Below, piece after piece: positions 4,604 through 42,814 of a stretch of DNA of 64,000 nucleotides. The position numbers and the translations under genes are program-made. Source of the stretch: Curtobacterium flaccumfaciens pv. betae (GTDB lineage: Bacteria > Actinomycetota > Actinomycetes > Actinomycetales > Microbacteriaceae); NCBI RefSeq assembly GCF_026241855.1, contig NZ_JAPJDC010000001.1:1116001-1180000 (forward strand). The letters are read 5' to 3'. Under the pieces are notes generated by a model that ran no database searches, was not told where the DNA came from, and saw only the letters and a program-made list of their open reading frames with translations. Positions within the stretch are counted from its first letter, which is position 1, and the number at the start of each line of letters is the position of its first letter.

Positions 4604-5472
4604 GCGGTCACGACTCGCCGTCGGTCCGGTGCCGACTGGTCGGGAACCGTCGGTGTGGTCGGCGCGGAGCGACGGCCTGCGACCGCTCGCGTGGTGCGGG
4701 ATGACGTGTCGTGACCGACCGACGGGGTGGACGCGACCGCCTGGAGGTCCGGTGCGGGTCCCGGGGACCGGTGGCGGGCCTCCAGGCGGTCACGACTCCC
4801 CGTCGCGACGCGGTCGTGTGGTCGGGAACCGTCGGTACGGTCGGCGCGGAGCGACGATCTGTGACCGCTCGGCGGGCGGGGGACGACGTGTCGTGACCGG
4901 TCGACGCGGCCAGCCGCCGGGGTGGACGCGACCGCCTGGAGGTCCGGTGCGGCTCCCGGGGACCGGTGGCGGACCTCCAGGCGGTCACGACTCCCCGTCG
5001 CGACGCCGTGGTGTGGTCGGGAACCGTCGCCGCGGGCGTCGCGGAGCGACGATCTGTGACCGCTCGGCGGGCGGGGGACGACGTGTCGTGACCGGTCGAC
5101 GCGGCCAGCCGCCGGGGTGGACGCGACCGCCTGGAGGCCCGGTGCGGGTCCCGGGGGCCGGTGGCGGGCCTCCAGGCGGTCACGACTCACCGTCGGGGCG
5201 CGGTCGTGTGGTCGGGAACCGTCGGCGCGGGCGTCGCGGAGCGATGATCTGTGACCGCTCGCGTGGTGCGGGACGACGTGTCGTGACCGACCGACGGGGT
5301 GGACGCGACCGCCTGGAGGTCCGGTGTGGGTCCCGGCGACCGTTGGCGGGCCTCCAGGCGGTCACGACTCACCGTCGGGACGCGGTCGTGTGGTCGGGAA
5401 CCGTCGGTAGGGTCGGCGCGGAGCGACGATCTGTGACCGCTCGGCGGGCGGGGGACGACGTGTCGTGACCGG
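4604..5472. repeat. tandem array of 182-195 bp palindrome-bearing units between proB and proA
   Basis: The whole proB-proA gap is a tandem repeat. The landmark GACCGCCTGGAGG starts at 4735, 4930, 5125 and 5307, giving periods of 195, 195 and 182 bp, with a partial unit before the first landmark. Each unit holds a large palindrome (ACCGCCTGGAGG ... CCTCCAGGCGGT), then GTCACGACTC, GGTCGGGAACCGTCG, GGAGCGACGATCTGTGACCGCTC and GACGACGTGTCGTGACC. Short units lack a 13-bp stretch around GACGCGGCCAGCCG. Long open frames on both strands here simply translate the repeat (recurrent GRDRLEVR or DRLEARHRS) and are not credible genes. Confidence 0.92.
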
Positions 5473-5542
5473 TGGTCGGGCGGACCGGGCCCGGAGGCAC
5501 GGCGAGTGTCCGGAACGCCCGTCACGAACCGAGGGACGGACC

Positions 5543-38638: not shown

Positions 38639-38753
38639 GGACGCATTCTCCCATCGGCATGGTTCCGAAGCTGAACGAGTGTGAAGCTGCGGTGAACAAC
38701 AGGTTGCCGATCAGGTTTGCTCGAAGGGCCGACGCCTGGGACACTTGCCCGCG

Positions 38754-40010
38754 GTGGACATCACACTCATAGTCGTCCTGGTCATCGCGTTGGCCCTCTT
38801 CTTCGACTTCACAAACGGTTTTCACGACACCGCCAACGCGATGGCGACCCCGATCGCGACCGGCGCCATGAAGCCCAAGGTGGCGGTCACCGTCGCTGCG
38901 GTGCTCAACCTGGTCGGTGCGTTCCTCAGCACCGCCGTGGCGACGTCGATCTCGCACGGGTTGATCAACGAGGGGCCCGGTGGCGTCGCCATCAGCCCGG
39001 AGATGATCTTCGCGGGCCTGATCGGGGCAGTCGTCTGGAACATGATCACGTGGCTCCGCGGGCTGCCGTCATCGTCGTCGCACGCACTGTTCGGCGGGCT
39101 GATCGGTGCCGCGATCGTCGGCGCCGGGTTCCAGTCGGTCAACTACGTCGCGCTGCTGACGGTGGTGATCATCCCGGCGTTCGCCTCGCCCGTGATCGCC
39201 GCGCTCGTGTCGTTCCTGTCGACGCGCATCGCGTACCGGATCACGAAGCGTCCGGTGTTCCCGAACGAGCGCGGCGGGTTCCGCATCGGGCAGGTCTTCA
39301 CCAGCTCGATGGTGTCCCTGGCACACGGCACCAACGACGCGCAGAAGACGATGGGTGTCATCACGCTGACCCTCATCGCCTCGGGCGCGCAGTCGTCGAA
39401 CCAGGGCGTGCAGTTCTGGGTCGTCGTCGCCTGTGCCCTCGCGATCGCCCTCGGTACCTACACGGGTGGTTGGCGCATCATCCGCACCCTCGGCTCGGGC
39501 ATCACCGAGATCCGCGCGACGCAGGGCTTCGCCGCCGAGGCCTCGACCGCCGCGACGATCCTCGCCTCCAGCCACCTCGGCTTCGCGCTGTCGACCACGC
39601 AGGTGTCCTCGGGCTCCATCATCGGTGCCGGTCTCGGCCGCCGCGGCTCGAAGATCCAGTGGTCGACCGCCGGCAAGATCGTCATCGCCTGGTTCATCAC
39701 CCTGCCCGCGGCTGCCGCGGTCGGTGCGGTCGCCTCGGGCATCGCCCGCCTCGGCGTCATCGGGCTGGTACTCGACGCCGTGATCGGTGCCGTCGTCATC
39801 CTCGGCCTGTACCTGTGGTCGCTCCGCAAGCCGCACGAGCAGGCCTCCGCGATCGAGGTCGACGTCGCCGCGAACGCGGTCCTGACCCGCAAGGAGCTGC
39901 GTGACATGCAGCGCAAGAAGCGTGCCGATGCGGTCGCCCAGCGTCGTGCCGAACTGAGCCGCGAGCGCACGCTCCGTCGCATGGCGGCCCGCAAGGGAGG
40001 CCGTCGCTGA
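38754..40010 (+). CDS. pit: inorganic phosphate transporter (PiT family)
   Basis: This is a low-affinity phosphate (or metal-phosphate) proton symporter of 418 aa. Both Pit signatures are present: FTNGFHDTANAMATPIAT near the start and SLAHGTNDAQKTMGVITL near 185. About ten transmembrane helices are visible. GTG 38754 (VDITLIVV) is preferred; a TTG at 38745 would touch a GACACT hexamer. The stop is fused to a mini-ORF by a TGATG overlap at 40008-40012. Confidence 0.92.
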   Translation: MDITLIVVLVIALALFFDFTNGFHDTANAMATPIATGAMKPKVAVTVAAVLNLVGAFLSTAVATSISHGLINEGPGGVAISPEMIFAGLIGAVVWNMITWLRGLPSSSSHALFGGLIGAAIVGAGFQSVNYVALLTVVIIPAFASPVIAALVSFLSTRIAYRITKRPVFPNERGGFRIGQVFTSSMVSLAHGTNDAQKTMGVITLTLIASGAQSSNQGVQFWVVVACALAIALGTYTGGWRIIRTLGSGITEIRATQGFAAEASTAATILASSHLGFALSTTQVSSGSIIGAGLGRRGSKIQWSTAGKIVIAWFITLPAAAAVGAVASGIARLGVIGLVLDAVIGAVVILGLYLWSLRKPHEQASAIEVDVAANAVLTRKELRDMQRKKRADAVAQRRAELSRERTLRRMAARKGGRR

Positions 40011-40066
40011 TGGGCATCGCGCTTGACGGACGCAGTTTTGCATTCCTCGAAGGGGGAGACCGCTGA
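40010..40066 (+). other. 18-codon mini-ORF chained between pit and the next gene
   Basis: ATG 40010 overlaps the pit stop (TGATG) and reads MGIALDGRSFAFLEGGDR. Its own TGA overlaps the next ATG at 40066 in the same TGATG way. Its start (MGI...D...FAFL) and DNA (CGCTGATGGGCATCG, TTTGCATTCCTC) repeat the start of the downstream gene (MGIDWFAFL). It looks like a partial duplication of the gene start that keeps translational coupling. Whether the peptide itself matters is unknown. Confidence 0.55.
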
Positions 40067-40362
40067 TGGGCATCGACTGGTTTGCATTCCTCACCGTGGC
40101 GCTCGTCGCCGTGGTCTCGTCGTGCTTCGTCGTCGCCGTGTACTCGGTCGGCCTCCGTCTCTGGAGTGCCGCCGACACCCGCGAAGGCAAGTTCACCGTG
40201 AAGGACGACGGCACGATCGGCCCGGCCACCGCCGGCTTCCCGAACCCGGCCGGAGCCTCGGCAGCGGCACGTGCGCTCCGTGCCGCGGCCATCGCGTGCT
40301 TCGTCGTGTGCGGCGCCGTCGTGCTCTACGGCATCTACCTCATCGTCCCGCAGTTCCACTGA
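40066..40362 (+). CDS. small two-helix membrane protein downstream of pit
   Basis: This is a 98-aa protein of unknown function. Helices are at about 5-30 (WFAFLTVALVAVVSSCFVVAVYSVGL) and 72-95 (AAIACFVVCGAVVLYGIYLIV). A polar loop between them contains KFTVKDDGTIGPATAGFPNPAG. It is tied to pit through the TGATG-linked mini-ORF, so it may assist or regulate phosphate transport (inference). A GGGGGAGA binding site precedes it. Confidence 0.75.
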   Translation: MGIDWFAFLTVALVAVVSSCFVVAVYSVGLRLWSAADTREGKFTVKDDGTIGPATAGFPNPAGASAAARALRAAAIACFVVCGAVVLYGIYLIVPQFH

Positions 40363-40378: not shown

Positions 40379-41260
40379 GTGAGCAGAAGACGCCGGGTCG
40401 CCCTTCGCGACCCGGCGTCCTCTGCTCCCTCGTCGCGCGTGCGCTGCGTGCGCTGCGTGCGCTGCGCTGCGTGCGCTGCGCGAGCGGGCGAAATGCCCGC
40501 GTCTTCGCGCGCAGGAACCCCGCCACCTCGCCCGCTCGCGTCCGGGCGTGCCCGCGGGTCGGACGGGAGGCCCGTGGCGGCCTGGCGCCGCGCCTCCGGG
40601 CCGTCGCGTGGCGAGTGGGAGAAATGCCAGCGCGCGTTGCCGAGGCGACCGCGGCATTTCGCCCGCTCGCGCGGGCGGCGCGTTCTCGGTGAGCAGAAGG
40701 TGTCGGGTCGCCGTCTGGGACCCGACATCTTCTGCTCACGAAGTGCGAGCGAGGGCGTCCGGGCGTGCCCGCGGGTCGGACGGGAGGCCCGTGGCGGCCT
40801 GGCGCCGCGCCTCCGGGCCGTCGCGTGGCGAGTGGGCGAAATGCCAGCGCGCGTTGCCGAGGCGACCGCGGCATTTCGCCCGCTCGCGCGGGCGGCGCGT
40901 TCTCGGTGAGCAGAAGGTGTCGGGTCGCCGTCTGGGACCCGACATCTTCTGCTCACGAAGTGCGAGCGAGGGCGTCCGGGCGTGCCCGCGGGTCGGACGG
41001 GAGGCCCGTGGCGGCCTGGCGCCGCGCCTCCGGTTCGTCGCGTGACGAGTGGGCGAAATGCCGGCGTGCGTTGCCGAGGCGACCGCGGCATTTCGCCCGC
41101 TCGCGCGGGCGGCGCGTTCGGTGAGCAGAAGATGTCGGGTCGCCGTCTGCGACCCGACGTCTTCTGCTCACGAAGCGCGAGTGAGGCCGGCCCCGGGCGA
41201 GCGGGCGGAATGCCGGCGTGCGTTGCCGAGGCGACCGCGGCATTTCGCCCGCTCGCGCAG
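40379..41260. repeat. composite tandem array of three palindrome types (215-217 bp units)
   Basis: The gap before aspA is one array. It begins with a degenerate 51-nt type element at 40379-40427, then a GTGCGCTGC tandem run. 51-nt palindromes (GTGAGCAGAAG...CTTCTGCTCAC) start at 40689, 40906 and 41121, so the period is 217 then 215 bp. Each unit also holds a family D palindrome (GGACGGGAGGCCCG...) and a third type (GCGAAATGCC ... GGCATTTCGC). Units at 40689 and 40906 are nearly identical. Open frames here on both strands translate the repeat (recurrent GREARGGLAPRL) and are not genes. Confidence 0.92.
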
Positions 41261-41329: not shown

Positions 41330-42814
41330 GTGACCGGCAACGAGGAGGCACCTGTGACGACGACGACGCGGACCGAGAGCGACTCGCTGGGATCACGGGA
41401 GGTCCCGAACGACGCGTACTGGGGCGTCAACACGTTGCGGGCGCTGGAGAACTTCCCGATCACCTCCGTCCCGATCGCCGTGTACCCGGACCTCATCGAG
41501 GCGCTCGTCACCGTGAAGCAGGCGGCGGCGCGGGCGAACCGGGCGATCGGTGTCCTCGACGAGGAGCGCGCCGATGCGATCGACCGCGCGGCGCAGGAGG
41601 TCCGCGACGGGGCGCTCCGCGAGCAGTTCGTCGTCGACGTCGTGCAGGGCGGCGCCGGGACGAGCACGAACATGAACACGAACGAGGTGCTCGCGAACCG
41701 GGCCCTCGAACTCCTCGGGCGTGAGCGGGGCGACTACGGGTACCTGCACCCGATCGACCACGTGAACCGCAGCCAGTCGACGAACGACACGTACCCGACG
41801 AGCATCAAGATCGCGATGATCTTCGGGGTCCGTCGTCTGATCGTGCAGCTCGAAGAACTGTCGGCGGCGTTCGCCGAACGGGGCCGCGCCTTCGCCGACG
41901 TGCTGAAGGTGGGCCGGACGCAGCTGCAGGACGCCGTGCCGATGACCCTCGGGCAGGAGTTCACCGGGTTCTCGCACACGATCCAGGAGGACGCGGACCT
42001 GCTCCGCAAGGTGATGCCGCTGCTCGCCGAGATGAACCTCGGCGCCACGGCGATCGGCACCGGGATCACCGCGGACCCGCTCTACCGCGACGAAGTCCGT
42101 CGGCAGCTGCAGGAGGCGAGCGGCATCGACGTCGTCACCGCCCCCGACCTCATCGAGGCGACGAGTGACGCCGGTGCGTTCATGACCCTGTCCGGCACGG
42201 TGAAGCGCAGCGCCGCGAAGCTCTCGAAGATCTGCAACGACCTGCGGCTGCTGTCGTCCGGTCCGCAGGCGGGTCTCGGTGAGATCACCCTGCCGGCTCG
42301 CCAGGCCGGCTCGTCGATCATGCCGGGCAAGGTCAACCCGGTGATCCCCGAGGTCGTGAACCAGATCGCCTACGCGGTCGCCGGGGCCGACACCACCGTG
42401 ACGATGGCGGCGGAGAGCGGGCAGCTGCAGCTCAACGCCTTCGAGCCGATCATCGCCCACTCGATCCTGCAGTCGCTGCAGTGGATGTCCCGCGGCTGCG
42501 CAACGCTGCGCGAGCACTGCGTCGTCGGCATCGAGGCGAACGAGGCGAAGCTCGCTGCGCAGGTCGACACGAACGTCGGCGTCGTCACCGCGCTCACGCC
42601 GTACATCGGGTACGCGGCGGCTGCGTCGATCGCGCACACGGCGCTGACCACCTCCACGCCGATCTCGACGCTCGTCGTGGCCGCGGGGCTGATGGAGGAG
42701 GACCAGGTCATGCGGGTGCTCAGCCCGGCACGGCTGTCGGGCATCGAGCTGGCGACGGGCGCGATCCCGATCATCACCGAGGAGATGCTGGACGCCGAGG
42801 CGCGCAAGCGCTGA
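41330..42814 (+). CDS. aspA: aspartate ammonia-lyase
   Basis: The enzyme deaminates L-aspartate to fumarate (494 aa). Fumarase/aspartase signature GSSIMPGKVNP is near residue 326, and GAGTSTNMNTNEV and HPIDHVNRSQSTNDTYPTS form the substrate-binding region. The sequence separates aspartase from class II fumarase only moderately well. Aspartase is favoured by overall pattern, but fumarase cannot be fully excluded. GTG 41330 lies 6 bases after TAGCCT (41318-41323); GTG 41354 is an alternative start. A convergent YihY gene follows. Confidence 0.88.
   Translation: MTGNEEAPVTTTTRTESDSLGSREVPNDAYWGVNTLRALENFPITSVPIAVYPDLIEALVTVKQAAARANRAIGVLDEERADAIDRAAQEVRDGALREQFVVDVVQGGAGTSTNMNTNEVLANRALELLGRERGDYGYLHPIDHVNRSQSTNDTYPTSIKIAMIFGVRRLIVQLEELSAAFAERGRAFADVLKVGRTQLQDAVPMTLGQEFTGFSHTIQEDADLLRKVMPLLAEMNLGATAIGTGITADPLYRDEVRRQLQEASGIDVVTAPDLIEATSDAGAFMTLSGTVKRSAAKLSKICNDLRLLSSGPQAGLGEITLPARQAGSSIMPGKVNPVIPEVVNQIAYAVAGADTTVTMAAESGQLQLNAFEPIIAHSILQSLQWMSRGCATLREHCVVGIEANEAKLAAQVDTNVGVVTALTPYIGYAAAASIAHTALTTSTPISTLVVAAGLMEEDQVMRVLSPARLSGIELATGAIPIITEEMLDAEARKR

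What the first reader, a model, noticed from the sequence alone, without database searches (positions are those of the whole stretch)
40379..41260. Second array built from three different palindromes in 215-217 bp units
Between a Pit-linked gene and aspA, a composite unit is repeated. It holds a 51-nt GTGAGCAGAAG palindrome, a GGACGGGAGGC palindrome and a GCGAAATGCC/GGCATTTCGC palindrome. The same elements occur singly in other gaps, so the array looks like a cluster of elements that then amplified as a block. Units at 40689 and 40906 are almost identical.
Basis: seen in the sequence. Interest (0 to 1): 0.75.

Follow-up and report, generated by a model that had tools for sequence, protein, structure and literature searches.

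The report
Mosaic array of gene-end hairpin repeats
Between two genes of a Curtobacterium chromosome, three families of small palindromic repeats have piled up and then been copied as a block; two of the families usually sit at the ends of genes, where they may mark where transcripts stop, while the third was found in only one stretch of the chromosome and also inside one protein gene.

Summary
Window 40379-41256 holds twelve palindromes of three families in the order A C B C A B C A B C A C; the 217-bp B-C-A unit occurs three times, two adjacent copies 100% identical. All three families occur elsewhere: A at 62 listed sites, B at 84 or more, C at 23. Best reading: a BIME-like mosaic that grew in one gap and was block-duplicated; C. 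aurantiacum has A-B-C-A-A there, and another species amplified B-C-A with a 180-bp unit and other junctions. A and B sit in gaps with a gene 3' end (59 of 62, 59 of 59 examined), median 19 and 15 nt from a stop, with covarying stems but no U-tract; I infer transcript-end hairpins. No RAYT in 40 Curtobacterium genomes. A-B co-occurrence is explained by the shared niche. Unexpected: the 23 C copies found lie in 0.3 of 3.7 Mb, with listed copies in the same segment in relatives, and C sits in frame, 0-3 copies, in an ECF-transporter ATPase gene. New variant of a known kind.

The parts
40379..40429 (.). palindrome A, copy A0; its model edge (40374) begins 11 nt behind the stop of the 98-aa gene
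   Evidence: distance
40435..40481 (+). GCGTGCGCT short tandem repeat between A0 and C0
40480..40539 (.). palindrome C, degenerate copy C0
   Evidence: 52 bits
40559..40604 (+). palindrome B, copy B1
40611..40670 (+). palindrome C, copy C1
40689..40739 (.). palindrome A, copy A1
   Evidence: folds at -46.5 kcal/mol, z -9.3
40776..40821 (+). palindrome B, copy B2
40828..40887 (+). palindrome C, copy C2
   Evidence: -47.6 kcal/mol, z -7.5
40906..40956 (.). palindrome A, copy A2
40993..41038 (+). palindrome B, copy B3
41045..41104 (+). palindrome C, copy C3
41121..41171 (.). palindrome A, copy A3
   Evidence: -49.2 kcal/mol, z -10.2
41197..41256 (+). palindrome C, copy C4, last element of the array
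   Evidence: -48.1 kcal/mol, z -6.5
40538..41186 (+). tandem repeat of the composite B-C-A unit, period 217, 3.0 copies, first two identical
40066..40362 (+). 98-aa gene upstream of the array (no Pfam match), behind the PHO4/Pit transporter gene 38745-40010
   Evidence: orthologue of at least 69% identity in 39 of 40 genus genomes
41330..42814 (+). aspA-type lyase (Lyase_1 + FumaraseC_C) downstream of the array

Best explanation
The array is a BIME-like mosaic of three palindromic repeat families in the gap between a Pit-linked gene and aspA. Shown: A and B are 61-nt and about 46-nt hairpin elements scattered over the chromosome, in the sites examined nearly always in gaps with a gene 3' end and usually just behind a stop codon; their stems covary; the same gap carries different sets in related species; the B-C-A block is tandemly repeated with different junctions in two species. 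Inferred: A and B work as two-way transcript 3'-end hairpins (termination and protection of the mRNA end, probably together with Rho, because there is no U-tract). This gap tolerates piling up because it lies behind one gene's stop and ahead of the aspA start. The block then grew by recombination or slippage between direct repeats. C spreads by local copying within one chromosome segment and was caught once inside a gene.
For: Families and counts. Gene context: A 31 convergent, 28 tandem, 3 divergent of 62; B 37, 22, 0 of 59 with context (84 sites listed, 24 not fetched, 1 at a piece edge); gaps of the window and sampled pieces 9, 41, 17 of 67, chi-square p 6e-6 and 3e-9. Nearest facing stop: median 19 nt (A) and 15 nt (B). 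In tandem gaps the stop is nearer than the next start for 21 of 28 A and 20 of 22 B (read off the table). In 11 A copies the element's own TGA is the gene's stop. Covariation: A 85 double-change cells versus 42.7 shuffled, B 55 versus 21.8, 0 of 500 shuffles reaching either; slid partners give 7-17 and 1-23. In 16 pairs of orthologous A copies (10 own sites), stems differ at 101 of 800 positions and loops at 59 of 176, with 26 compensatory pairs. Array history; gap length follows the number of palindromes (r = 0.95, 26 of 27 gaps).
Against: No expression data were used, so termination or mRNA protection is not shown. No U-tract: 0 of 51 A and 0 of 51 B have 5 or more T in the 10 nt after the element, so these are not canonical intrinsic terminators. 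B1 of the array (identical to B2) folds no better than its shuffles (z 0.03). A dozen hairpins in a row exceed what one terminator needs. Two weaker covariation measures are not decisive: pairs with a change on both sides are reached by 38 of 500 (A) and 73 of 500 (B) shuffles, and further pair types for B by 86 of 500; the shuffles also do not keep relatedness. In the orthologous pairs 23 single changes have a non-pair before or after and 11 double changes lack pairing, against 26 compensatory and 4 single pair-keeping changes, and double changes may come from conversion by another copy: L252 has the flanks of own site 1144107 but an element like own site 72884. Three A copies lie in divergent gaps. 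Gene calls come from my own codon-usage script, not from annotation. That the two amplifications are independent rests on their junctions; one amplification with a later 37-bp change is not excluded.
Confidence: 0.62

Rival explanations
1. Neutral or selfish hairpins: A, B and C spread by an unknown factor and survive at gene 3' ends only because insertion there does least harm; they have no function of their own.
For: Patchy presence: A in 28 of 40 and C in 28 of 40 genus genomes, in only partly overlapping sets. C is absent or present in 1-3 copies inside a gene. Same-site turnover in the pit-aspA gap.
Against: In orthologous pairs stems are conserved more than loops (101 of 800 versus 59 of 176) with 26 compensatory pairs; 18 of 28 A loci from other genomes have flanks matching an own A site on at least one side (read off), so many copies are old and kept; other palindrome families share the niche.
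Confidence: 0.2
2. REP/REPIN elements moved by a REP-associated tyrosine transposase (Y1_Tnp, RAYT).
For: Palindromic form, copy number, extragenic 3' position and clustering resemble REPs and BIMEs (PMC3733652 passages; PMC2817692 passages).
Against: No Y1_Tnp match in the own genome or in any of 40 genus genomes, 34 of which carry A or C, while the controls ring in 5 of 14. A has no GTAG-type tag in its flanks.
Confidence: 0.06
3. Family C is a position-specific chromosomal site, like matS in the E. coli Ter domain, bound by a domain-organising protein; the array here is one of its sites.
For: The 23 own copies found lie in 298.8 kb of 3.70 Mb, 1 of 200,000 trials for 7 random points. In 100 own-genome pieces outside the segment (367,649 bases, some overlapping) the C model finds 11 matches of 25-34 bits, all on A or B palindromes and no C. 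The 34 listed sites of nine other near-closed genomes lie from -269 to +180 kb of the same anchor gene.
Against: Sites come in tandem clusters and are largely the same inherited sites (20 of 28 loci), so descent plus local copying explains the confinement, and clusters are not independent points. 12 of 40 genomes have no C match. The only parS-like site found lies near the contig end, so the segment is probably mid-arm, not Ter or ori.
Confidence: 0.1

Closest known systems
REP sequences and BIMEs (bacterial interspersed mosaic elements) of enterobacteria and pseudomonads
   Same: Short palindromic repeats, mostly extragenic, single or in mosaic tandem clusters; proposed roles in termination and mRNA stability (PMC3733652 and PMC2817692, passages).
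   Different: No RAYT in 40 genus genomes; no GTAG tag on A; A (61 nt) and C (60 nt) are longer than the 20-40 bp given for REPs; three unlike palindromes; C found in one chromosome segment only.
RPE (Rickettsia palindromic elements) and CGTC-tagged repeats
   Same: A palindromic repeat found both between genes and in frame inside a protein gene, in families not tied to a transposase gene (PMC3733652 passages).
   Different: Only one host gene was found here (ECF-type ATPase linker), with 0-3 tandem copies; sequence and host phylum differ.
3'-end stem-loop sequences described across bacterial genomes
   Same: Stem-loops prefer convergent gaps and the 50 bp after stop codons, and some form repeat families (PMC1590033 passages).
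   Different: In the passages I saw, its high-GC Gram-positives are Corynebacterium and Mycobacterium; the families here were found in Curtobacterium (A also weakly in two other genera) and are amplified into arrays.
matS sites of the E. coli Ter macrodomain
   Same: A repeated site confined to one segment of the chromosome (23 sites in 800 kb, start of the PMC3330122 abstract in a search listing).
   Different: C is a 60-nt palindrome in tandem clusters, probably mid-arm, without a match in 12 of 40 genomes, and no binder is known.

Membership tests
REP | short palindrome in tens to hundreds of extragenic copies | tested here: met
   A 62, B at least 84, C 23 listed sites; none of 62 A and 59 B sites with context lies inside a called gene, though 11 A overlap a stop codon
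REP | GTAG (or CGTC) unpaired tag at one end | tested here: not met
   A: no GTAG-like conserved tetranucleotide in the 20 nt either side of 51 oriented copies. B ends in a CGTC that pairs with its other arm, so B is unclear; C not tested
REP/REPIN | cognate RAYT (Y1_Tnp) gene | tested here: not met
   0 of 1 and 0 of 40 genus genomes
BIME | mosaic cluster of several palindrome types, some tandemly amplified | tested here: met
   other genomes
BIME | regularly spaced REPs in alternating orientation | tested here: inconclusive
   spacing regular (217); orientation is poorly defined for near-perfect palindromes; by model score 3 of 3 B and 4 of 5 C have one orientation, so no alternation is seen
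RPE-like palindromic element | in-frame insertion inside a protein gene, with empty-site orthologues | tested here: met
   C only:
intrinsic terminator | GC-rich hairpin just after a stop codon | tested here: met
   (B1 of the array folds poorly)
intrinsic terminator | U-tract after the hairpin | tested here: not met
   0 of 51 A and 0 of 51 B with 5 or more T in 10 nt; the consensus scan finds no terminator-like site in the array
MITE | terminal inverted repeats with target-site duplication and a helper transposase | not tested
   no empty A or B site was aligned for duplications
matS-like domain site | specific binding protein | not testable with these tools
   needs binding assays

The most novel reading that the evidence does not exclude
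Family C is a palindromic element that can copy itself only to nearby places on the chromosome, or is kept only there, so that one chromosome segment is marked by it in the Curtobacterium species that carry it, with one lineage of copies living in frame as a protein linker. It would be a natural record of distance-limited DNA copying inside a bacterial nucleoid, or a new kind of chromosome-domain site.
Probability: 0.2. Interest if true: 0.75.

Novelty: new variant of a known kind. Interest (0 to 1): 0.5.

Why it matters
It gives a clean case of a BIME-like mosaic array in an actinobacterial genus where no RAYT was found, with stages preserved at one site in 27 genomes (0 to 12 palindromes), so the growth of such arrays can be followed step by step. 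The confinement of family C to one chromosome segment, and its double life between genes and inside a transporter gene, make the question of how REP-like repeats spread without a RAYT directly testable.

Tried and rejected
RAYT-driven spread: rejected on the Y1_Tnp searches. Canonical terminators: rejected for lack of a U-tract. A known structured RNA: at gathering thresholds Rfam gives only one tRNA in the window. A composite element defined by A-B co-occurrence: not above the shared 3'-end preference. An ori or Ter location for the C region: the single parS-like site found is near the contig end; sampled GC skew was too noisy to help. Strain comparison at the array in the same-species genome G199 failed, because its contig ends about 30 nt behind the 98-aa gene. 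Literature: of three searches for such repeats in these bacteria, one held no paper, one 36 papers of which I saw 15 listed, one 9; from titles and abstract starts I recognised none that describes palindromic repeats of Curtobacterium or Microbacteriaceae. Most subscription journals are not in that library.

Limits of the counts: each genome search scored only the best candidates of a first look (150, 136-137). All 150 B candidates matched, so B is a lower bound, and the array's own B copies are not even in that list; 123 of 150 A and 45 of 150 C candidates gave matches. As a check, the A model run on 69 own pieces not chosen for A, the window among them, finds no strong A copy outside the list, only matches of 21-26 bits at C or B palindromes (the one at L076:158 was not identified); for C. 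The two weakest listed C sites (36-38 bits) score little above the cross-matches. The match lists were cut, so positions in other genomes are the best-scoring ones; for five of the nine genomes only one site was used, and G224 is 65% complete. The comparison gaps come from the window and 14 sampled pieces, one of them lengthened by an overlapping piece chosen for B. In one search, 6 of 121 proteins could not be parsed and two of the 14 'zero copy' rows (P0118, P0120) are mis-parsed, leaving 12 clean empty linkers; the 120 homologues are the best of 7443. In one search some gap lengths failed or were wrong (L282), so one search replaced them.

Full report
What is there. The window is G000:C1:1116001-1180000 of a 3.78-Mb genome in 2 contigs. 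Its AspA is 98% identical to that of Curtobacterium aurantiacum CFBP 8824, and one same-species genome is in the set (G199). The gap between a 98-aa gene (40066-40362, no Pfam match, behind a PHO4/Pit gene) and an aspA-type lyase (41330) is 967 bp long. It holds A C B C A B C A B C A C. The B-C-A unit is tandemly repeated three times with a period of 217; units one and two are identical.

The three families genome-wide. I built covariance models from 15 A, 13 B and 9 C copies and searched the genome; each search scored 150 candidates. A: 123 matches at 62 distinct sites (the last two weak) spread from 73 kb to 3.65 Mb. B: 150 matches, 84 distinct sites, a lower bound. C: 45 matches at 23 distinct sites, all between 998,299 and 1,297,092. 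A control run of the C model on 100 own pieces outside that segment (367,649 bases, some overlapping) finds only 11 matches of 25-34 bits, which fall on A or B palindromes. MAFFT needed no gap in 61 A copies cut at 61 nt (the weakest, 2906541, was left out); the model's own match spans are 61 nt apart from a few of 60 or 62 on one strand and the weakest site. The A and C copies and the one typical B copy folded are far more stable than shuffles; B1 of the array, identical to B2, is not.

Where A and B sit. Using my own codon-usage gene caller, A is in 31 convergent, 28 tandem and 3 divergent gaps of 62; B in 37, 22 and 0 of the 59 sites with context (24 of 84 were not fetched, 1 at an edge). 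Gaps of the window and of sampled pieces split 9, 41, 17 of 67 (p 6e-6 and 3e-9). The nearest facing stop codon is 19 nt (A) and 15 nt (B) away at the median; in 11 A copies the TGA of the element itself ends the gene. Many B copies carry a further outer arm next to the stop: GACGC(G/A)ACC upstream in 20 of 51 and GGT(T/C)GCGTC downstream in 17 of 51, one mismatch allowed, against 1 and 4 in reversed sequence. Among the comparison gaps a strong palindrome is found in 6 of 9 convergent, 16 of 41 tandem and 0 of 17 divergent, and in none after shuffling. This is the pattern reported for stem-loops across bacteria (PMC1590033, passages). Stems covary in A and B by the cell counts and scores, less clearly by the counts of pairs. 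In 16 pairs of orthologous A copies at 10 own sites, stems change at 101 of 800 positions and loops at 59 of 176, with 26 compensatory pairs, 4 single changes that keep pairing, 23 single changes with a non-pair before or after and 11 double changes without pairing. One of these sites (L252) carries another A subtype in like flanks, which points to copying between A elements. There is no U-tract. I therefore infer transcript-end hairpins that do not rely on the canonical intrinsic mechanism; this is not shown.

How the array grew. An orthologue of the small gene was found in 39 of 40 genus genomes (G221, 73% complete, gave only a 42% paralogue) and loci were taken for 30. Three contigs end in the gap, leaving 27. 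Of these 25 hold at least one of the families. Examples: C. aurantiacum (G203) A-B-C-A-A; G209 A-B-C-A-C-B-C; G231 A-C-B-C-A-B-C-A-B-C with a 180-bp unit; G205, G218, G223, G233 arrays of B and C without A (some of these C matches are weak); many with a single B or A; two with none. In G231 the repeat junction joins A directly to B, while in the own genome 37 further bases lie between, so the two amplifications have different junctions and are most simply independent. Gap length rises by about 82 bp per palindrome (r = 0.95, 26 of 27). A and B share gaps no more than their common 3'-end preference predicts.

Family C. In nine other near-closed genomes the 34 C sites that the cut list or the fetched loci show lie between -269 and +180 kb of the same anchor gene. 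Of 28 C loci from other genomes, 20 have flanks matching own C sites, 1 an own gap without C, 7 no match in the pieces held. Two own copies lie in frame in an 869-aa protein with two ABC ATPase domains and a CbiQ domain, in the linker between the ATPases. Six relatives checked on DNA have 1, 2, 3, 1, 1, 1 copies there, read by eye, without a stop; the same-species genome has 1 where the own genome has 2. Among the best 120 homologous proteins plus the query, 115 linkers could be parsed: 51 with two copies, 49 with one, 1 with three, 12 clean empty linkers of 29-35 residues (three of them named C. citreum) and 2 mis-parsed. P0110 (C. citreum) comes from a contig of the same length as G215, a genome without a C match. 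So C behaves like a palindromic element inserted into a gene, as described for RPEs (PMC3733652, passages).

What moves them is open. No Y1_Tnp match is present in 40 genus genomes. A is found in 28 and C in 28 of the same 40, in only partly overlapping sets (22 both, 6 A only, 6 C only, 6 neither). In the wider family sample, with stricter scoring, A occurs in 5 of 199 genomes, 3 of them in this genus, the own one included.

Verdict. Real, well above chance, and best described as a new variant of the REP/BIME kind: a mosaic array of palindromes in a genus where no RAYT was found, with one segment-confined family that also lives inside a gene.

Noticed in passing
L104:3838-6447 (G000:C1:1017837-1020446): Family C palindrome sits in frame, twice, in the linker of a double-ATPase ECF transporter protein; copy number 0-3 in relatives.
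   Followed up: yes
window 40011-40067: An 18-codon reading frame whose start resembles that of the following 98-aa gene and whose TGA overlaps that gene's ATG; it looks conserved in L118, L119, L121 and L122 by eye. Possibly a coupled leader peptide.
   Followed up: no
window 4604-5473: The other array of the window also contains palindromes that match the B model weakly (4736, 4931, 5126, 5308), so it may be a B-derived array.
   Followed up: partly
own-genome gaps, e.g. G000:C1:713112 and 32902: Further palindrome families (GAATCGGGCGTACC..., CGAGACGCCGCCGGA...) occupy the same 3'-end niche.
   Followed up: partly
L270, L271, L279: Contigs of three other genomes end within about 110 nt behind the 98-aa gene, as expected if arrays there break short-read assemblies.
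   Followed up: no
L200, L201, L204: A few A-like palindromes occur in two other genera of the family (G052, G192).
   Followed up: no
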